From assembly GCA_026388255.1 (NCBI GenBank), contig JAPLKC010000104.1, positions 1 through 35,126 on the forward strand: 35,126 nt of DNA, read 5' to 3'. The position numbers were made by a program, and so were the translations under genes. Of the stretch, positions 725 through 27,609 are shown in pieces (position 1 is the first letter of the stretch; each line of letters starts with the position of its first letter). The notes below the pieces were generated by a model that was not told where the DNA came from, did not search any database, and worked only from the letters and a program-made list of their open reading frames with translations. This DNA is from Pseudomonadota bacterium (GTDB lineage: Bacteria > Desulfobacterota > Syntrophorhabdia > Syntrophorhabdales > Syntrophorhabdaceae).

Positions 725-970
725 ATGATGGGCAAAGGAAAGATAGCGATCACACTGGATGAGGAATTTGTTGGCGAACTGGACAGGCTTGTCAATGAAC
801 ATGTTTTTCAAAACCGGAGTCAGGCGATTCAAGAAGCTGTGAGTGAAAAACTGCTGCGTATGAAACACAGCCGACTGACAATGGAGTGTGCCAAACTCGA
901 TCCTGCCTTTGAAAAGGCAATGGCTGAGGAAGGTCTGGCTGAGGATGTGAATCAATGGCCGCAATACTGA
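725..970 (+). CDS. Ribbon-helix-helix (CopG-type) antitoxin
   Basis: The protein has 81 residues. The N-terminal part (KIAITLDEEFVGELDRLV, about residues 5-22, then NRSQAIQEAV at about 31-40) matches a ribbon-helix-helix DNA-binding fold, as in CopG/MazE-like antitoxins. The acidic C-terminal tail would be the toxin-binding segment. Two ATG codons stand in tandem at 725 and 728, preceded by AGGAGG; either could start. The gene overlaps the toxin start by 16 bases, which implies translational coupling, and a good promoter lies directly upstream. The expected role is to neutralise the partner MazF-like RNase and repress the operon. The pair is bracketed by the attC-like sites at 591-654 and 1286-1347. 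Confidence 0.85.
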   Translation: MMGKGKIAITLDEEFVGELDRLVNEHVFQNRSQAIQEAVSEKLLRMKHSRLTMECAKLDPAFEKAMAEEGLAEDVNQWPQY

Positions 971-1290
971 GGGGAGAGATTCGGTGGGCAGACCTTAACC
1001 CCACAAGAGGTCGTGAGCAGTCAGGATTGCGTCCTGTCCTGATCTTGAGTCATGACGTTTTTAACGACCGCTCAGGTACAGTCATAGCTGTGGCAATTAC
1101 GAGCCAACCTCAAAAGGCCGGGTTTCCGTTAACGCTTGAACTTAAAACCATAGGCTTGCCGAAGCGGTCATGGGCTAAGATCAGTCAAATCCGGACACTC
1201 TCTGTTGAAAGGATTGGAAAACTGATCGGTAAAATATCCCGGGAGGAGTTGACCCAAATCATTGAGGGACTGAATGAAATCATTGCGTAA
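955..1290 (+). CDS. MazF/PemK-family endoribonuclease toxin
   Basis: The protein has 111 residues, the usual length of MazF/PemK toxins. The family signature is visible at the N-terminus: RGEIRWADLNPTRGREQSG (about residues 6-24), the GxxxWxxLxP...G-x-EQSGxRPV pattern, followed by RPVLILS. The middle carries the AITSQ and WAKISQIRTLS segments of the SH3-like barrel. Such toxins cleave mRNA at short sequence motifs and are held in check by the cognate antitoxin. The start ATG lies inside the end of the antitoxin gene. The stop TAA at 1288-1290 is also part of the TAAC box of the attC-like site B. Family assignment is firm; cleavage specificity cannot be read from the sequence. Confidence 0.9.
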   Translation: MAAILRGEIRWADLNPTRGREQSGLRPVLILSHDVFNDRSGTVIAVAITSQPQKAGFPLTLELKTIGLPKRSWAKISQIRTLSVERIGKLIGKISREELTQIIEGLNEIIA

Positions 1291-14983: not shown

Positions 14984-16285
14984 ATGTACAGCAGCTTATA
15001 TAAGAAAAAGCTTACTACCCCTGAAAAAGCTGTAAGGCTAATAAAAGACGAGGATATGCTTGTTCACGGGCTTACTATGGCTGAACCGCCTGCCCTGCTT
15101 AGAGCAACGGCTTCCCGCATAAGGGCGGGAGACCTCAAGCGGATCAGGATATTTTCCGTACTGCCCTTAGCTCATGCCTGTACGACGCTTCTTGTGCCTG
15201 ATCTTGTTGACTGTGTCGAGGCATACAGCGGTTTTGTGAGCGCAGGCGCAAGGGGAATGGTAAGGACCGGACTCAGCTATTATATACCGAATCATCTCCA
15301 TCAGATTCCAAGGCTTTTAAAAGAGTTTATAGGGGTTGATGTATGTGTGACCATGGTGTCGCCCATGGATAAGGCAGGGTATTTTTCATTTGGAACAGCC
15401 AACGATTTTACGTCTACGGCTGCAAGGGCAGCAAGGGCATTGATTGTTGAGGTAAATCGCCATATGCCGAGAGTCTTTGGGGATTCCCTTCTGCACATTT
15501 CTGAAGTGGATGCAGTCATAGAAAACGACGAGCCCATCCCTGATTTTCCACGTGCTGAAGCAAGGCCTGAAGACGAGATCATTGGTCGGATGATAGCAGA
15601 AATAGTTCCTGAAGGTGCTGCCCTGCAGTTAGGCATAGGCAGCCTGCCAAACGCTGTGGCAAGGCACCTCGAACATCACAGTAAACTCGGTATCCATACC
15701 GAGGTCTTTGGCCCCGGCATGGTTTTTCTTATTAAGAAAGGAGTTATCACCGGTGAAAAGAAAACCTTACATCCCAGGAAGCATGTCTATACTGTGGCGC
15801 AGGGTGACCAGGGGATGCTCGAGTTTATGAACGATAATCCCGCAATGGTCAGCTATCCCTGTTCTTATACCAACCATCCCTCAGTGATAGCGCAAAATGA
15901 CCGTATGATTTCAATTAACTCTGTTCTTCAGGTTGATCTTTTGGGACAGTGCAACGCAGAATTTTTATCCGGCTATCAATATAGTGGTACAGGCGGGCAA
16001 CTGGATTTTGTAAGGGGCGCCTTTGATTCGAAGGAAGGAAAATCAATTCTTGCTTTTTACTCTACCGCAAGCAATGGTGAAATATCACGGGTTGTCGACC
16101 GTTTCGATTCAGGTGCTATGGTTACTACCCCTCGTATGGATACCCATTATCTGGTAACGGAATTCGGTGTTGCCAATCTAAAAGGTAAATCCACAAGGGA
16201 TAGGGCACTGGCAATCATCGGTTTGGCGCATCCTAAATACCGTGAACAACTCCTGCGCCGTGCAGAGGATATGTATCTTTTGTGA
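14984..16285 (+). CDS. Acetyl-CoA hydrolase/transferase family protein (4-hydroxybutyrate CoA-transferase-like)
   Basis: The protein has 433 residues, matching the 4-hydroxybutyrate and butyrate CoA-transferase group. AAGGAGG precedes ATG 14984. The C-terminal half shows LGIGSLPNAV at about residues 216-225, then GIHTEVFGPGM with candidate catalytic Glu240 that would form the glutamyl-CoA thioester. GTGGQLDFVRGA near the middle of the second domain is the conserved CoA-binding glycine loop of this family. It would exchange CoA between acetate or a short acid and an acyl-CoA, which fits the CoA-thioester metabolism of the 20-25 kb genes. It stands alone with its own ribosome site and ends at a clear hairpin. 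Exact acid substrate is uncertain. Confidence 0.88.
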   Translation: MYSSLYKKKLTTPEKAVRLIKDEDMLVHGLTMAEPPALLRATASRIRAGDLKRIRIFSVLPLAHACTTLLVPDLVDCVEAYSGFVSAGARGMVRTGLSYYIPNHLHQIPRLLKEFIGVDVCVTMVSPMDKAGYFSFGTANDFTSTAARAARALIVEVNRHMPRVFGDSLLHISEVDAVIENDEPIPDFPRAEARPEDEIIGRMIAEIVPEGAALQLGIGSLPNAVARHLEHHSKLGIHTEVFGPGMVFLIKKGVITGEKKTLHPRKHVYTVAQGDQGMLEFMNDNPAMVSYPCSYTNHPSVIAQNDRMISINSVLQVDLLGQCNAEFLSGYQYSGTGGQLDFVRGAFDSKEGKSILAFYSTASNGEISRVVDRFDSGAMVTTPRMDTHYLVTEFGVANLKGKSTRDRALAIIGLAHPKYREQLLRRAEDMYLL

Positions 16286-20061: not shown

Positions 20062-20094
20062 AAAAAAAGAGCCGGCACATGTGCCGGCTCTTTT
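20062..20094 (-). terminator. Rho-independent terminator of the acyl-CoA operon
   Basis: A perfect 30-base palindrome (20065-20094) with a GC-rich core GAGCCGGCAC runs into seven T on the minus strand (20068-20062), directly after the activator gene. On the plus strand it is followed by only four T. It separates this operon from tex. Confidence 0.9.
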
Positions 20095-20112: not shown

Positions 20113-20889
20113 CTATACTTTTTCAGATGCCAGTATGGCAGCACCAAGAGCGCCGACTATTTGAGGCTCTGAATGAATTCTCAAACTTGTGCCTAAAGCA
20201 TTTTCAAGAGCCTTAACAACGCCGATGTTTTTTGCAACACCTCCTGTCATTATTACCTCTTCTTTAGCACCGCCCAATCTGTTGATCAAGCCTATTGTCC
20301 TGTCGGCTATTGCCCTGTGAATCCCGTACAATATGTCTTCTATTTCTTCCCCTTCACTTACAAGAGAAATAACCTCTGATTCTGCGAAAACAGTGCATAT
20401 ACTGCTGATTGCCAATTCCTTTTTGTGTTGCAGTGATATATCACCTATTTTATTAAGATCAACATCTAATGCCTTTGCCATTACCTCGACGAACCTGCCT
20501 GTACCTGCCGCACATTTATCATTCATCTCGAATTCTACAACACGTCCCTTTTGGTCAATCCTTATCACCTTTGTATCCTGCCCGCCAATGTCTATGATTG
20601 TCCTTGCGTCCGGGAAAAGGTAATTTACGCCTTTTGCAATACAAGTTATCTCTGTGATAGACTGTTGTGCAAACATGGCCCTTTTTCTACCGCAGCCCGT
20701 AGCAACAACATATGATATGTCAGAAGACTGTTTCGACTGATAGGCAAGCACTTTCTCAAGGGCATTTTCTGCAGACTTTTTAGAATCAGCACCAGTCTGT
20801 GCTATCTCATAGTAAAGAATACCTTTGTCCTTATCAAAAAGGAGTGCTTCTGTTGTGATAGAGCCTATATCAATTCCAGCAACTAACAT
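20113..20889 (-). CDS. BcrAD/BadFG/HgdC-type activator ATPase with [4Fe-4S] cluster
   Basis: The protein has 258 residues, the length of single-subunit activators such as HgdC. It has an ASKHA ATPase fold: GIDIGSITTEALL at residues 5-17, IIDIGGQDTKVI at 98-109, and MTGGVAKN near the C-terminus. Cys126 in NDKCAAGTGRF and Cys165 in SSICTVFAES are the two ligands that let the homodimer hold one [4Fe-4S] cluster at the interface. These proteins use ATP to drive one electron into 2-hydroxyacyl-CoA dehydratases or benzoyl-CoA reductases. No dehydratase or reductase subunit is in the window, so the partner is elsewhere or novel. It is last in a tight operon after the biotin carrier (16-base gap). 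Confidence 0.93.
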   Translation of the reverse strand: MLVAGIDIGSITTEALLFDKDKGILYYEIAQTGADSKKSAENALEKVLAYQSKQSSDISYVVATGCGRKRAMFAQQSITEITCIAKGVNYLFPDARTIIDIGGQDTKVIRIDQKGRVVEFEMNDKCAAGTGRFVEVMAKALDVDLNKIGDISLQHKKELAISSICTVFAESEVISLVSEGEEIEDILYGIHRAIADRTIGLINRLGGAKEEVIMTGGVAKNIGVVKALENALGTSLRIHSEPQIVGALGAAILASEKV

Positions 20890-20905
20890 GTATTATTACC
20901 TTTCC

Positions 20906-21121
20906 TTACTCAATAATGGCAAGAATGGCGTCTGCTTCTACGTCTTGGCCTGCGGATACCATTATTTCTTTTATAACGCCTCCTACCGGCGCTACGATAG
21001 GCATTTCCATCTTCATTGCTTCAAGAGTTGCAATCTGGTCATCTTCGGCAACCTTATCTCCAACATTTACAATAACATTTACGATTTTTCCAACCATTGG
21101 AACAGTTACTTCTGTAGCCAT
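20906..21121 (-). CDS. Small biotin carboxyl carrier protein
   Basis: The protein has 71 residues, only the biotinyl/lipoyl beta-barrel. The biotinylation site EAMKMEMPI places the modified Lys at residue 37, and the mirror half VGGVIKEIMVSAGQDVEAD completes the fold. AAGGAGG precedes ATG 21121. It lacks the Ala/Pro linker and N-terminal domain of AccB or of decarboxylase gamma subunits. It lies 23 bases after the acyl-CoA dehydrogenase and 16 before the activator, so it must be co-expressed with both. Such orphan carriers serve acyl-CoA carboxylases or Na+-pumping decarboxylases, but no carboxyltransferase or biotin carboxylase gene is nearby. Confidence 0.92.
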   Translation of the reverse strand: MATEVTVPMVGKIVNVIVNVGDKVAEDDQIATLEAMKMEMPIVAPVGGVIKEIMVSAGQDVEADAILAIIE

Positions 21122-21144
21122 TTTAGCCTCCTTAAATTTTGTTG

Positions 21145-22302
21145 TTAACTCTTTCTGTAACCCAAAGCAAACTGAGCGATTATCATTTTCTGAACATTTG
21201 ATGTGCCTTCAACTATCTGATAAGACTTTGCATCTCTTAAGTATCTCTCGACAGGATATTCTGAAGAGAAACCGTAGGAACCGAATATTTTTACTGCTTC
21301 TGAGGCGCAGAAATTTGCAGACTCAGCAGCATAATATTTTGCCATGGAGGTTTCAAGGGTGTTGTTCATTCCCTGGTCCTTCTGCCATGCTGCTCTGTAG
21401 ACAAGCAATTTTGCAGCGTCGTGTTCGACAGACATCCTGCCAATCTGCTCCTGAATCATCTGGAACTGGCCTATCGCCTGACCAAACTGCTCTCTCTCAT
21501 TGGAGTATTTGCAGGCTTCATCGATACATGCCTGTGATACGCCGACTGCCCTGGCTGCTGAACTTAAACGTGTGAAGTTAAGCATGGTCATACAAATATT
21601 AAATCCCTGACCAAGTTTTCCTACAAGGGCGCTTTTCGGTATCTTTGCTTCTTCAAAGAAAATCTCACCGGTAGGTGCACAGTGAAGGCCGAGTTTTGTT
21701 GTAATAGCCCTCTGGGTGACGCCGGGGGTATTGAAATCAACAAAGAATGCGGACATACCTTTGTGTTTTGCTGCTGTGTCGGTCATAGCATAGACAATAC
21801 CGGAACCACAATAGGGTACTCCGGATATCCATGTTTTTGTACCATTGAGAATAAAACCATCATCAACTTCTTTTGCAGTTGTTTTCATGCTGGCCACGTC
21901 AGATCCGGAGTTCGGCTCTGTAATAGCAAAGCAGCTACCGTTTGTCCCTGCAATCAGTCCCGGCAAGTACTGCTCTTTTAATTCATCGCTTGCAAATTTT
22001 ATTAGTGCATTCTGAGGACCATTCATCTGAAGGTTGAAGGGAAGTCCCCAAGAAGGACTTACTCTTGCAAATTCCATTGCCATGAGGGTTGCTGCCATAT
22101 GGCCTTCCTCAAGTCCGAGTCCGCCGTACTGTTCAGGGGCAATACAGGCAAACATGCCCTGGTCGCCCATTTTTTTCAGCATTTCAGGACGATATTTATG
22201 CTCCTTTTCATCTTCTTCCATAGTAGGTTTAATATTTTTTACAGCGAAATCATAAGCCATTTTACGCATTGATTCGAGCTCATCAGAAAACTTAAATTCC
22301 AT
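21145..22302 (-). CDS. Acyl-CoA dehydrogenase (short/medium-chain type)
   Basis: The protein has 385 residues, normal for the family, with AAGGAG before ATG 22302. FAD-binding and family patterns are present: CFAITEPNSGSDVASMKTTA in the middle domain, NGTKTWISG, and the C-terminal YLRDAKSYQIVEGTSNVQK. Glu365 in that last motif is in the place of the catalytic base of butyryl- and medium-chain acyl-CoA dehydrogenases. It oxidises an acyl-CoA to the enoyl-CoA and passes electrons to ETF. It heads the operon with the biotin carrier and the activator, under the promoter at 22347-22375. Chain length or a decarboxylating (glutaryl-CoA) reaction cannot be settled by eye. Confidence 0.95.
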   Translation of the reverse strand: MEFKFSDELESMRKMAYDFAVKNIKPTMEEDEKEHKYRPEMLKKMGDQGMFACIAPEQYGGLGLEEGHMAATLMAMEFARVSPSWGLPFNLQMNGPQNALIKFASDELKEQYLPGLIAGTNGSCFAITEPNSGSDVASMKTTAKEVDDGFILNGTKTWISGVPYCGSGIVYAMTDTAAKHKGMSAFFVDFNTPGVTQRAITTKLGLHCAPTGEIFFEEAKIPKSALVGKLGQGFNICMTMLNFTRLSSAARAVGVSQACIDEACKYSNEREQFGQAIGQFQMIQEQIGRMSVEHDAAKLLVYRAAWQKDQGMNNTLETSMAKYYAAESANFCASEAVKIFGSYGFSSEYPVERYLRDAKSYQIVEGTSNVQKMIIAQFALGYRKS

Positions 22303-22346: not shown

Positions 22347-22375
22347 ATATTAGCAAAGCGCATTTTTCATGTCAA
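22347..22375 (-). promoter_or_regulatory. Promoter of the acyl-CoA dehydrogenase operon
   Basis: On the minus strand TTGACA (22375 to 22370), a 17-base spacer and TAATAT (22352 to 22347) form a good sigma-70 promoter about 45 bases before the start codon. Confidence 0.6.
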
Positions 22376-22627: not shown

Positions 22628-23563
22628 TTGATTTTTAATAAAACGGGTTTGGTTAAGGATAATTTATATGTTACAGGTTTTCCCTGGTCACCGGTTTACC
22701 TCTTAGTTTCTGAACACCCGGTTATTTTTGAAGCCGGTTTTTGCTGTATGGGTAGGCACTATGAAAAAGATATAATAGAAATATTGCACGAAAGAAAACC
22801 AGAAATGCTTTTTATAACACATGTTCATTATGATCATTGCGGAGCAGCATCGTATCTGAAAAAGGTATTTGAGGGCTTGAAAATAGGTGCTTCCGGAAGA
22901 GCCTCAGAGATAATTCAAAGACCTAATGCACAGGCATTAATGGTTAACTTAAGCGAAAATGTAATTAAATTAATTGAAAATATGGATGATGTAAATAATG
23001 ATATACTTGTTAGAGATCAATTTGAGCCTTTTCATGTGGATACGTTGCTTGAAGACGGACAGATCATTGATTTTAAAAACGGTTTATCTGTCCATGTTTT
23101 TGCAAGTCCCGGGCATACAAGAGATATGTTAAGCTATTATATACCTGAGAAAAAATTTCTTATAGCAACAGAAACTGCCGGCTGTATGAGCCATACCGGC
23201 GCTATAGTTACCGAATTTCTGGTTGATTACGATGCTTACATCACATCTCTAAGGCGGCTTGCCGAGTTGGAAGTAGATGTATTATGTCAGGGACACCATT
23301 TTGTTTTTACCGGCAGCGATGTAAAGAAACATTTTGAAAAGTCTATTATTTCAGCAGAAAAATTCAGAGAGACTGTGGAAGATTTTCTACGATTGGAAGA
23401 TGGTTCAGTTGAACGGGTAGTCTCCTTGATTAAAGCTCAGGAGTATGACCTGAATCCCGGACCCAAGCAACCGGAGGGGGCATATATGCTTAATCTCAGG
23501 AAAAGGGTGGCCCATTTGGCTGAACGGCTTGAGGCAAAAAGACACGGCGACAATTTATCGTGA
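22628..23563 (+). CDS. MBL-fold metallo-hydrolase
   Basis: The protein has 311 residues and uses a TTG start at 22628, with GAGGGAAG 4 bases upstream; no ATG fits better. The metal motif HVHYDH is at residues 65-70, SPGHTRDM supplies a further His, ETAGCMSH and CQGHH follow in the expected order. The fold hydrolyses thioesters, lactones or phosphodiesters among others; the glyoxalase II-like spacing and the setting suggest a thioesterase, possibly on CoA esters, but this is inference. The C-terminal 60 residues (EKFRETVEDFLRLEDGSVER) resemble the winged helix-like extension of many MBL enzymes. The gene precedes hbd on the same strand with its own spacing of 223 bases. Confidence 0.88.
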   Translation: MIFNKTGLVKDNLYVTGFPWSPVYLLVSEHPVIFEAGFCCMGRHYEKDIIEILHERKPEMLFITHVHYDHCGAASYLKKVFEGLKIGASGRASEIIQRPNAQALMVNLSENVIKLIENMDDVNNDILVRDQFEPFHVDTLLEDGQIIDFKNGLSVHVFASPGHTRDMLSYYIPEKKFLIATETAGCMSHTGAIVTEFLVDYDAYITSLRRLAELEVDVLCQGHHFVFTGSDVKKHFEKSIISAEKFRETVEDFLRLEDGSVERVVSLIKAQEYDLNPGPKQPEGAYMLNLRKRVAHLAERLEAKRHGDNLS

Positions 23564-23786: not shown

Positions 23787-24647
23787 ATGGAAATCAAAAC
23801 TATTGGAGTATTGGGCGCAGGCGTTATGGGAAACGGCATTGCCCAGGTAGCCGCTCAGGCAGGCTATAATGTTATTTTGAGAGATATTGAAGACAGGTTT
23901 GTCGAAGGTGGCATCAAGAATATTGATAAGTTTCTCTCAAAGAGCGTTGAAAAAGGTAAAATGACTGCAGACGCTAAGAATGAGCTCATGGGAAGAATCA
24001 AAGGTACAACCAAGATGGAAGACCTCAAAGACGTGGACTTTGTTGTTGAGGTTATTATCGAAGTAATGGATGTAAAGAAAAAGGTATTTGCAGAGCTGGA
24101 TGAACTTACCAGAAAGGATGTAATACTTTCCACAAACACATCATCAATGTCAATTACCGAGATTGCAACGGCAACGAAGAGACAGGATAAGATTGTGGGT
24201 ATGCACTTTTTTAACCCGGTGCCACTTATGAAGCTGGTAGAAATCGTAAGAGGACATAGGACCAGCGATGAAACATATGCAATAACTGCTGATTTGACAA
24301 AGAAGCTTGGCAAAGAGGGTGTTGAGGTAAAAGTTGATGTGCCGGCTTTTCTTGTTAACAGACTTATGATACCGCACTTTATTGAGGCAATGAAGCTTTA
24401 CGAACAGGGTGTAGCATCGAAGGAAGATATAGATAAAGCAGCAAAGCTTGGTCTTAATTACCCTATGGGGCCCTTTGAACTGATGGATCTTACAGGTCTT
24501 GATATCAACCTGAATGTGAATGAGTATCTGAGAAAAGAGTTGCCTGCTGAGTTGAAATGGCAGTCTTCTCTGGAGTTGAAGAACTTAGTAAAGGTCGGCA
24601 GACTGGGAAGGAAGACCGGCGCAGGATGGTACGATTACAACAAGTAG
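23787..24647 (+). CDS. hbd: 3-hydroxybutyryl-CoA dehydrogenase
   Basis: The protein has 286 residues, normal for short-chain 3-hydroxyacyl-CoA dehydrogenases. The NAD-binding loop is GVLGAGVMGNGIA with Gly10, Gly12 and Gly15. The catalytic pair is His140 in GMHFFNPVP and Glu152 in KLVEIVRG, with the conserved STNTSS at 115-120. It interconverts 3-hydroxyacyl-CoA and 3-oxoacyl-CoA with NAD(H), the third step of beta-oxidation, and fits the acyl-CoA dehydrogenase and CoA-transferase in this window. GGAGGAAT upstream supports ATG 23787. A bidirectional terminator follows. No thiolase or crotonase is present in the window. Confidence 0.95.
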   Translation: MEIKTIGVLGAGVMGNGIAQVAAQAGYNVILRDIEDRFVEGGIKNIDKFLSKSVEKGKMTADAKNELMGRIKGTTKMEDLKDVDFVVEVIIEVMDVKKKVFAELDELTRKDVILSTNTSSMSITEIATATKRQDKIVGMHFFNPVPLMKLVEIVRGHRTSDETYAITADLTKKLGKEGVEVKVDVPAFLVNRLMIPHFIEAMKLYEQGVASKEDIDKAAKLGLNYPMGPFELMDLTGLDINLNVNEYLRKELPAELKWQSSLELKNLVKVGRLGRKTGAGWYDYNK

Positions 24648-27510: not shown

Positions 27511-27609
27511 CGCCAGGCCCTGCGCAACGTGGAGGTTATTAACCCCGTCAGATTCGGAAGAAAGCAGCGGCAGTAACTAATCCGTGTGCCGCAGGTAGCC
27601 TGGTTTTTT
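27511..27609 (+). ncRNA. ffs: Bacterial small signal recognition particle RNA (4.5S)
   Basis: CCAGGC at 27513-27518 pairs with GCCTGG at 27598-27603, closing a roughly 95-base hairpin. The conserved SRP domain IV core is present: GTCAGATTCGGAAGAAAGC near 27547-27565 (GTCAG..CGGAA..AGCAG). A T6 run follows at 27604-27609 as terminator. It forms SRP with Ffh for membrane-protein targeting. Exact ends are uncertain by a few bases. Confidence 0.93.

What the first reader, a model, noticed from the sequence alone, without database searches (positions are those of the whole stretch)
20113..22302. Acyl-CoA dehydrogenase, lone biotin carrier and radical-enzyme activator in one operon
The three genes are 16-23 bases apart between one promoter and one terminator. 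The biotin carrier has no carboxyltransferase or decarboxylase beside it, and the activator has no dehydratase or reductase partner. Either the partners are encoded elsewhere or the three form an unusual unit, for example a dehydrogenation step linked to a Na+-pumping decarboxylase such as glutaconyl-CoA decarboxylase.
Basis: partly seen in the sequence, partly recalled or inferred. Interest (0 to 1): 0.5.

Follow-up and report, generated by a model that had tools for sequence, protein, structure and literature searches.

The report
Conserved operon with lone biotin carrier
In a group of bacteria that break down aromatic compounds without oxygen, one conserved three-gene operon appears to hold one piece each of three different enzymes whose other pieces lie elsewhere in the genome, and its tiny biotin protein seems to be the only free-standing one the cell has, so it is probably shared between an energy-conserving sodium pump and fat synthesis.

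Summary
Three minus-strand genes (acyl-CoA dehydrogenase, 71-aa biotin carrier, activase; gaps of 23 and 16 bases) form an operon conserved in close relatives: activase present in 25 of 26 loci, the exception being a contig end. The "missing" partners exist on other contigs: GcdA (C49), GcdB with a GcdD-like ORF (C96), and a dehydratase-type [4Fe-4S] pair without its own activase (C61, HgdXY). In more distant relatives the dehydrogenase+carrier pair persists without the activase, beside the benzoyl-CoA ring-cleavage genes had and bamA. Best reading: glutaryl-CoA -> glutaconyl-CoA (dehydrogenase), then Na+-pumping decarboxylation to crotonyl-CoA with this carrier as gamma subunit; the activase serves HgdXY. 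Unexpected: (1) carrier and GcdD-like ORF lack the tethering parts of clostridial Gcd; (2) the carrier is the only free-standing biotin domain found in the 19 of 21 genomes that have it, and accB was not found although accA and accD are present, so acetyl-CoA carboxylase probably shares it; (3) the dehydrogenase clade lost the usual pocket Arg but gained one on another helix. Against: three small genomes keep the trio without GcdA.

The parts
21145..22302 (-). [quoted passage not shown]
   Evidence: best PDB match 3mpi (glutaryl-CoA dehydrogenase, 345 bits)
20906..21121 (-). 71-aa biotin carrier, proposed gamma subunit (GcdC-like) of glutaconyl-CoA decarboxylase and probable shared carrier of acetyl-CoA carboxylase
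20113..20889 (-). ATP-dependent activase of the 2-hydroxyacyl-CoA dehydratase / benzoyl-CoA reductase type, with Cys126 and Cys165
20065..20094 (-). terminator-like hairpin running into a U tract after the activase
   Evidence: z -4.5
22347..22375 (-). sigma-70-like promoter site upstream of the dehydrogenase
   Evidence: consensus match only
23787..24647 (+). divergent 3-hydroxybutyryl-CoA dehydrogenase, a downstream step from crotonyl-CoA; neighbour of the trio in 9 of 26 close relatives
22628..23563 (+). divergent metallo-beta-lactamase-fold protein, frequent neighbour of the trio; role unknown

Best explanation
The operon gathers one subunit each of three enzymes whose remaining subunits are scattered in the genome. 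(1) The dehydrogenase oxidises glutaryl-CoA, from benzoyl-CoA ring cleavage, to glutaconyl-CoA and does not decarboxylate it (inferred from homology, context and the Val before the catalytic Glu). (2) GcdA (C49) transfers the carboxyl group of glutaconyl-CoA to the biotin on the 71-aa carrier, releasing crotonyl-CoA; the carrier reaches the membrane subunits GcdB/GcdD (C96), where decarboxylation exports Na+ (inferred; candidate partners identified). Because both the carrier and the GcdD-like ORF lack the anchor and Ala/Pro-rich linker parts, the carrier probably diffuses rather than swings on a tether. Since no AccB was found while AccA and AccD are present, the same carrier probably also serves acetyl-CoA carboxylase. 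(3) The activase injects electrons, driven by ATP, into the activase-less [4Fe-4S] dehydratase-type pair HgdXY on C61; its substrate is unknown, and 2-hydroxyglutaryl-CoA (giving glutaconyl-CoA) is an attractive guess. Crotonyl-CoA is then oxidised to acetyl-CoA by enoyl-CoA hydratase, 3-hydroxybutyryl-CoA dehydrogenase and thiolase, some or all of which several relatives encode divergently next to the trio.
For: Closest solved structure of the dehydrogenase is the glutaryl-CoA dehydrogenase 3mpi (345 bits; next 281), and the two share a fully supported clade (100/100; the tree tool warns that long branches, 3mpi among them, meet). It has Val before the catalytic Glu, as 3mpi does, while none of 13 other acyl-CoA dehydrogenases compared does. 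Among the 24 more distant loci (65% identity or less) the dehydrogenase is followed by the carrier in 15, with had in 17 and bamA in 15 within 7.5 kb; Had and BamA of one locus, L050, pass their curated cut-offs. Among the 26 close loci, 3-hydroxybutyryl-CoA dehydrogenase lies divergently in 9 and enoyl-CoA hydratase in 6; thiolase in 4 of 20 stretches plus one fragment. Own genome: one GcdA (1pix 735 bits, C. symbiosum GcdA 724, best non-Gcd protein 154), one Na+-pump beta subunit (TIGR01109 398 > 190.6; the model covers all such decarboxylases) with a 44-aa GcdD-like ORF upstream; L063 has these two on the same contig as the dehydrogenase. The carrier and a fused PycB-like domain are the only two biotin domains found in the own genome, and accA and accD pass their models. 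HgdXY has no activase within its contig or in 20 order stretches and 15 outside loci and keeps at least three Cys per subunit; the reductase-like genes on C139 have their own two activase subunits. A distant HgdY relative (41% identity, L242) does have an activase beside it (255 bits to the window's).
Against: The dehydrogenase misses the curated cut-off of NF045552 (420.5 against 470) and has Gly86 where 3mpi has Arg. By sequence alone the carrier cannot be assigned: no NCBIfam carrier model is over its cut-off, and its best PDB match is a pyruvate dehydrogenase E2. Three small genomes (G001-G003, 96-98% complete) keep the trio and HgdXY but have no GcdA at E <= 1e-100, and only G003 has a GcdB-like protein at E <= 1e-60 (50% identity); seven further genomes of the 46 also gave no GcdA. 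Presence of HgdY and of the trio activase is not associated across the 46 genomes (36 both, 3 activase only, 6 HgdY only, 1 neither; Fisher p 0.5); G004 has the activase but no hit at all in the HgdY search. Six of the 24 distant loci have no carrier beside the dehydrogenase. The carrier lacks the thumb of AccB. Nothing was measured.
Confidence: 0.6

Rival explanations
1. The carrier's conserved job is acetyl-CoA carboxylase (it replaced AccB), and its use in glutaconyl-CoA decarboxylation is secondary or absent; its place beside the dehydrogenase is historical.
For: It is the only free-standing biotin domain found in the 19 of 21 genomes that have it; an AccB was found only in G044, where the trio carrier was not found; accA and accD are present in the own genome; G001-G003 keep it without GcdA.
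Against: No thumb loop; TIGR00531 33.7 bits against a cut-off of 115.2; in 15 of 24 more distant loci the same carrier stays beside the dehydrogenase, mostly with benzoyl-CoA genes; in most genomes GcdA and GcdB have no other candidate carrier.
Confidence: 0.2
2. Dehydrogenase, activase and HgdXY form a reductive 2-hydroxyacyl-CoA pathway like Had/AcdB of C. difficile or the acrylate pathway (both recalled): HgdXY makes an enoyl-CoA and the dehydrogenase reduces it; the carrier is incidental.
For: Activase and dehydrogenase share the operon; HgdY is closest to HadB (286 bits; benzoyl-CoA reductase B 190); second NCBIfam hit of the dehydrogenase is acryloyl-CoA reductase (338 bits); G001-G003 keep trio and HgdXY without GcdA.
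Against: In more distant loci the dehydrogenase travels with the carrier and had/bamA without the activase; its best matches are glutaryl-CoA dehydrogenases; HgdXY was not next to it in any stretch examined.
Confidence: 0.15
3. The operon is built around glutaconyl-CoA: HgdXY + activase make it from 2-hydroxyglutaryl-CoA, the dehydrogenase makes it from glutaryl-CoA, the carrier's decarboxylase consumes it (a stronger form of the best explanation).
For: All three genes can be placed at that node; the glutamate fermentation route runs 2-hydroxyglutaryl-CoA, glutaconyl-CoA, crotonyl-CoA (PMC5861303, passages).
Against: HgdXY's substrate is untested; no 2-hydroxyglutaryl-specific evidence was found; no co-occurrence signal.
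Confidence: 0.25
4. The three proteins form one new enzyme complex.
For: Conservation of order and spacing in close relatives.
Against: Each protein belongs to a different well-known complex with candidate partners elsewhere; the activase is absent from the operon in more distant loci.
Confidence: 0.04

Closest known systems
Non-decarboxylating glutaryl-CoA dehydrogenase of Desulfococcus multivorans (3mpi/3mpj; organism and activity recalled; NF045552)
   Same: Best sequence relative in the PDB, 44% identity; Val before the catalytic Glu
   Different: Gly or Ala at 86 in place of the pocket Arg, Arg251 on another helix in 47 of 47 clade members; below the NF045552 cut-off
Glutaconyl-CoA decarboxylase GcdABCD of Acidaminococcus / Clostridium symbiosum (PMC7145394, abstract and passages)
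   Same: GcdA orthologue at 735 bits, GcdB family, a small GcdD-like ORF, separate biotin subunit with MKM motif
   Different: Genes at three loci; carrier only 71 aa, without N-terminal anchor and Ala/Pro linker (C. symbiosum: 30-aa N-terminal region + 48/39-aa AP region); GcdD-like ORF 43-49 aa in 9 of 10 loci and 75 aa as called in the tenth against 10 kDa
Geobacter bemidjiensis glutaryl-CoA dehydrogenase Gbem_1452 next to gcdA Gbem_1453 (PMC2996986, passages)
   Same: Dehydrogenase 44% identical to the D. multivorans enzyme, linked to a Gcd subunit in a benzoate pathway
   Different: There the neighbours are GcdA and a two-biotin-domain OadA; here a lone carrier and an activase
2-hydroxyacyl-CoA dehydratases HadI/HadBC and HgdC/HgdAB
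   Same: Activase above the TIGR00241 cut-off with two candidate cluster Cys; HgdXY pair with at least three conserved Cys per subunit
   Different: Activase gene unlinked from HgdXY in the own genome and in 35 other stretches

Membership tests
Non-decarboxylating glutaryl-CoA dehydrogenase (NF045552) | Curated model score >= 470 bits | tested here: not met
   420.5 bits; best of the five own-genome matches, none over cut-off
Non-decarboxylating glutaryl-CoA dehydrogenase (NF045552) | Val instead of Tyr before the catalytic Glu (key exchange; recalled from the abstract of Schaarschmidt et al., paper not held) | tested here: met
   V364-E365, as in 3mpi
Non-decarboxylating glutaryl-CoA dehydrogenase (NF045552) | Arg that binds the distal carboxylate (human R94 position; role recalled) | tested here: not met
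   G86; Arg251 in helix 233-269 may substitute
Non-decarboxylating glutaryl-CoA dehydrogenase (NF045552) | Forms glutaconyl-CoA, not crotonyl-CoA | not testable with these tools
   needs an assay
Glutaconyl-CoA decarboxylase gamma subunit (GcdC) | Separate biotin carrier with MKM biotinylation motif | tested here: met
   EAMKMEMP in 41 of 41 carriers
Glutaconyl-CoA decarboxylase gamma subunit (GcdC) | N-terminal anchor and Ala/Pro-rich linker | tested here: not met
   69-71 aa in 36 of 41 carriers as called (five longer calls of 75-93 aa begin upstream); known GcdC from PMC7145394
Glutaconyl-CoA decarboxylase gamma subunit (GcdC) | GcdA and GcdB encoded in the same genome | tested here: met
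   own genome; order: GcdA in 36 of 46 genomes, 0 of 3 in family f2
BCCP of acetyl-CoA carboxylase (AccB, TIGR00531) | Curated model score and thumb loop | tested here: not met
   33.7 against 115.2 bits; no thumb, unlike AccB of G044
Acyl-CoA dehydratase activase (TIGR00241) | Curated model score | tested here: met
   256.1 against 125.4 bits
Acyl-CoA dehydratase activase (TIGR00241) | Two cluster-binding Cys per monomer (recalled from HgdC) | tested here: inconclusive
   Cys126 (KCAAGTG) and Cys165 (ICTVFA) are present; their match to the HgdC ligands is recalled, not aligned here
Acyl-CoA dehydratase activase (TIGR00241) | Gene next to its dehydratase/reductase genes | tested here: not met

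The most novel reading that the evidence does not exclude
Syntrophorhabdales run a single, untethered, freely diffusing biotin carrier that is shared by a catabolic Na+-pumping glutaconyl-CoA decarboxylase and the anabolic acetyl-CoA carboxylase, so carboxybiotin made from glutaconyl-CoA could be spent either on pumping Na+ or directly on making malonyl-CoA. Its gene is controlled together with a glutaryl-CoA dehydrogenase whose carboxylate-binding arginine has moved to another helix.
Probability: 0.3. Interest if true: 0.7.

Novelty: new variant of a known kind. Interest (0 to 1): 0.5.

Why it matters
Energy conservation in syntrophic aromatic degraders is marginal, and the glutaconyl-CoA Na+ pump is one of their few coupling sites. 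The work finds candidates for all of its parts in this genome, explains why annotators would see orphans, and points to a carrier without tether that may be the cell's only separate BCCP. If shared, it would link catabolic decarboxylation to fatty acid synthesis, which is testable with a handful of purified proteins. The arginine swap is a clear structural prediction about how glutaryl-CoA specificity can be rebuilt.

Tried and rejected
One fused complex of the three proteins: rejected, because each belongs to a different complex and the activase is absent from the operon in more distant loci.

Activase as a spare for the class I benzoyl-CoA reductase-like genes on C139: unlikely, because that cluster has its own two activase subunits. 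Activase for the single HGD-D protein on C88: not excluded; that protein has no NCBIfam match at 1e-15.

Co-occurrence of HgdY and trio activase as proof of partnership: tried, not informative (36/3/6/1 of 46, Fisher p 0.5). Presence was set by me: activase orthologue = best E <= 1e-100; HgdY orthologue = 79% identity or more, two short fragments (G024, G043) counted as present.

I first took a Cys (ELC, HgdY C69) as a dehydratase-specific ligand from the HadB alignment (note); the alignment of 36 rows shows it is not conserved (20 of 36), so I dropped that argument. For the other subunit, HgdX, the PDB scores do not separate dehydratase from reductase (HadC 131.1, BzdN 130.6 bits).

In one search two rows (L179, L181) were the wrong ORFs (longest, not dehydrogenase); corrected. 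One search left out four short or split loci (L063, L064, L065, L068).

The neighbourhood clustering used a 45% identity threshold and could miss activases; repeated with phmmer (none in 20 stretches and C61).

In-frame stops reported for the second OAD-beta paralogue: in L217 and L219 the paralogue is an intact 372-aa ORF, so there these are most likely the ends of the genes; the other cases were not looked at.

Structure: the model (pLDDT 84.1) is an ordinary acyl-CoA dehydrogenase fold; 3mpi/3mpj and butyryl-CoA dehydrogenases tie at Z about 50, so the fold does not tell the substrate. No coordinates were available to measure Arg251.

Papers: Wischgoll 2009 and Schaarschmidt 2010 were not held; what I say of them is recalled. 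The listings showed no paper that I recognised as describing this operon; I saw passages of seven papers (PMC13101534, PMC7145394, PMC4992975, PMC8805022, PMC2996986, PMC5861303, PMC7274780) and listings only for the rest. Nobu et al. 2015 on the S. aromaticivorans genome was seen only as a reference.
Full report
WHAT IS THERE. Three minus-strand genes, 22302-21145, 21121-20906 and 20889-20113, with gaps of 23 and 16 bases, lie between a promoter-like site and a strong hairpin that runs into a U tract. They encode an acyl-CoA dehydrogenase, a 71-aa biotin domain with the motif EAMKMEMP, and a BcrAD/BadFG-type activase.

CONSERVATION. A scan of named genomes with the dehydrogenase gave 51 loci. 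In the 26 loci with a dehydrogenase at 79-92% identity over its length (L018-L042, L062) the carrier follows in 26 of 26 and the activase in 25 of 26; in L038 the contig ends 58 bases after the carrier, and L026 and L039 hold a cut activase. L063 is also close (88%) but its contig ends inside the dehydrogenase. Of the other 24 loci (65% identity or less), 15 have dehydrogenase + carrier without activase, six have no carrier beside it (L054-L058, L061) and three are too short to tell (L044, L065, L068). I treat the 26 as Syntrophorhabdales: 13 of them share their contig length with a contig of a genome of the window's order and several titles say so; that the 24 lie outside the order follows from identity and titles only.

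THE DEHYDROGENASE. The best solved relative is the glutaryl-CoA dehydrogenase 3mpi (345 bits, next 281), at 44% identity. It scores 420.5 bits on the curated non-decarboxylating model, below the cut-off of 470, and is the best of five own-genome matches. Context speaks for glutaryl-CoA: among the 24 more distant loci, 6-hydroxycyclohexenecarbonyl-CoA dehydrogenase (had) lies within 7.5 kb in 17 and the ring-opening hydrolase BamA in 15; the L050 copies pass their models (493.2 > 338.65 and 549.5 > 464.45 bits). Among the 26 close loci, 3-hydroxybutyryl-CoA dehydrogenase (9) and enoyl-CoA hydratase (6) lie divergently, and thiolase in four of 20 stretches, plus a fragment in a fifth. These are steps before glutaryl-CoA and after crotonyl-CoA.

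AN ARGININE SWAP. Glutaryl-CoA dehydrogenases hold the distal carboxylate with an Arg (human R94; recalled). 3mpi has an Arg there; the window protein has Gly86. In a tree of 62 rows, 47 of 47 members of the window's clade (the window and 46 of the 51 loci) have Gly (44) or Ala (3) at 86 together with Arg at 251 and Val before the catalytic Glu; the two nearest outgroup rows (3mpi and L061 of Desulfoferrobacter) have Arg86, Gly251 and Val; none of 13 other acyl-CoA dehydrogenases has Arg251 or that Val. Arg251 lies in the long helix 233-269 of the model and residue 86 in helix 83-103 (pLDDT 84.1). Arg251 is seven residues after T244, which I place at the MCAD Thr255 / isovaleryl-CoA dehydrogenase Glu254 position (recalled), so it is well placed to face the acyl pocket. 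This looks like one exchange at the base of the clade, so the correlation is a single event and the compensation is an inference. The tree tool warns of meeting long branches, 3mpi among them.

THE CARRIER. The own genome has one GcdA (L070:8298-10016; 735 bits to A. fermentans 1pix, 724 to C. symbiosum 3gf3, then 154 for the best other carboxylase) and one Na+-pump beta subunit (L069:7027-8166, 398 bits against 190.6 on a model that covers all such decarboxylases) with a 44-aa GcdD-like ORF directly upstream (not tested against a family model), on contigs C49 and C96, inside the contigs and without a carrier beside them. In L063 gcdB and its small ORF lie about 7.5 kb from the dehydrogenase. 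GcdA is found in 36 of 46 genomes of the order at E <= 1e-100 (30 of 37 good ones), a GcdB-family protein in 37 of 46 at E <= 1e-60. Known GcdC has an N-terminal anchor and a long Ala/Pro linker, and GcdD is 10 kDa (PMC7145394, abstract and passages). Here 36 of 41 carriers are 69-71 aa (the other five calls begin upstream), and the GcdD-like ORF is 43-49 aa in nine of ten loci (75 aa as called in the tenth). The tethering parts are thus missing on both sides. By sequence alone the carrier is not assignable: no NCBIfam carrier model is over its cut-off, and its best PDB match is a pyruvate dehydrogenase E2. The assignment rests on context and on the lack of any other candidate.

THE ONLY FREE-STANDING CARRIER. 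A search for biotin/lipoyl domains in 21 genomes (E <= 0.001) found the trio carrier in 19; in 11 of these it is the only match, in four more the others are weak (25.1 bits or less, in frames of 277-528 aa), and in four there is a fused domain in a large protein (PycB-like in G000 and G023; a 686-688-aa frame in G021 and G022). A separate AccB next to an AccC-like frame was found only in G044, where the trio carrier was not found; G012 gave none. All 14 control genomes rang. The own genome has AccA (429.8 > 319.3), AccD (387.7 > 317.45) and a biotin carboxylase beside the PycB-like protein (678.2 > 626.5 on accC). I did not test accA, accC or accD in the other 20 genomes. The simplest reading is that the carrier also serves acetyl-CoA carboxylase. 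Against it: it lacks the thumb loop that the G044 AccB has and fails the AccB model (33.7 against 115.2 bits).

THE ACTIVASE. It passes TIGR00241 and is nearest to MbdQ (247 bits), HadI (232) and HgdC (207). In the own genome the five activase domains over the cut-off are this one, the two on C139 next to their reductase-like subunits, and two in a 1382-aa fusion on C93. The five HGD-D proteins are the C139 pair, the C61 pair (HgdXY) and a single one on C88. HgdXY is the only pair without an activase. It keeps at least three Cys per subunit in 34-36 of 36 aligned rows. In the NCBIfam models it is nearer to HadBC than to benzoyl-CoA reductase (286 against 190 and 186 against 137 bits), while in the PDB search HgdX scores alike for HadC and BzdN (131 each). 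HgdY is 79-97% identical in full-length matches across the order, and the pair has no activase gene near it in C61, in 20 order stretches or in 15 loci outside the order at 58-71% identity. One more distant relative (L242, 41%) does have an activase next to it (255 bits to the window's). So partnership by elimination is reasonable but not proven; co-occurrence shows nothing (36/3/6/1 of 46).

WHAT DOES NOT FIT. The three genomes of family f2 (1.5-2.1 Mb, 96-98% complete) keep the trio and HgdXY, but have no GcdA at E <= 1e-100, and only G003 has a GcdB-like protein at E <= 1e-60 (50% identity). There the carrier may serve acetyl-CoA carboxylase only, and the role of the dehydrogenase is open. 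Seven further genomes gave no GcdA, which may be gaps. G004 has the trio but no hit for HgdY.

COMPARED WITH WHAT IS KNOWN. Non-decarboxylating glutaryl-CoA dehydrogenase plus Na+-pumping Gcd is known from D. multivorans and Syntrophus (recalled; Gcd in S. aciditrophicus is named in PMC7145394). G. bemidjiensis pairs such a dehydrogenase with GcdA (PMC2996986, passages), and the benzene degrader ORM2a has the dehydrogenase with EtfAB and a Gcd alpha subunit elsewhere (PMC13101534, passages). New here, as far as the listings of the open library show, are the order-wide operon with the activase, the reduced and unlinked carrier that is the only free-standing biotin domain, and the arginine swap. 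It works like these systems; by the membership rules I do not file the dehydrogenase under NF045552 nor the carrier under AccB or classical GcdC.

Noticed in passing
L070:5504-8087 (own genome C49): gcdA is followed on the same strand by bioF-like and bioA genes (bioA over cut-off; bioF 417 against 426.45 bits), placing the decarboxylase next to biotin synthesis.
   Followed up: partly
L072:41-3759 (own genome C61): A thiolase gene lies directly upstream of HgdXY; its relatives lie next to the trio in several genomes. Not seen upstream of HgdXY in the same-genus genome G023 (L137).
   Followed up: partly
L217 and L219: A second OAD-beta paralogue (372 aa) sits next to gcdB in two relatives; about 48% identical to GcdB. 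Its partner is unknown.
   Followed up: no
window 27511-27608 +: Bacterial small SRP RNA (RF00169, 73.4 bits) upstream of dnaX.
   Followed up: no
window 14984-16285 +: Acetyl-CoA hydrolase/transferase family protein about 4 kb from the trio, possibly an acyl-CoA transferase.
   Followed up: no
window 955-1290 +: PemK/MazF-like toxin-antitoxin toxin gene (104 bits), with an 81-aa ORF just upstream (725-970) that was not tested.
   Followed up: no
L073:3684-4679 - (own genome C88): Single 331-aa HGD-D protein (131 bits to PF06050) with no NCBIfam match at 1e-15; possible alternative partner of the activase.
   Followed up: partly
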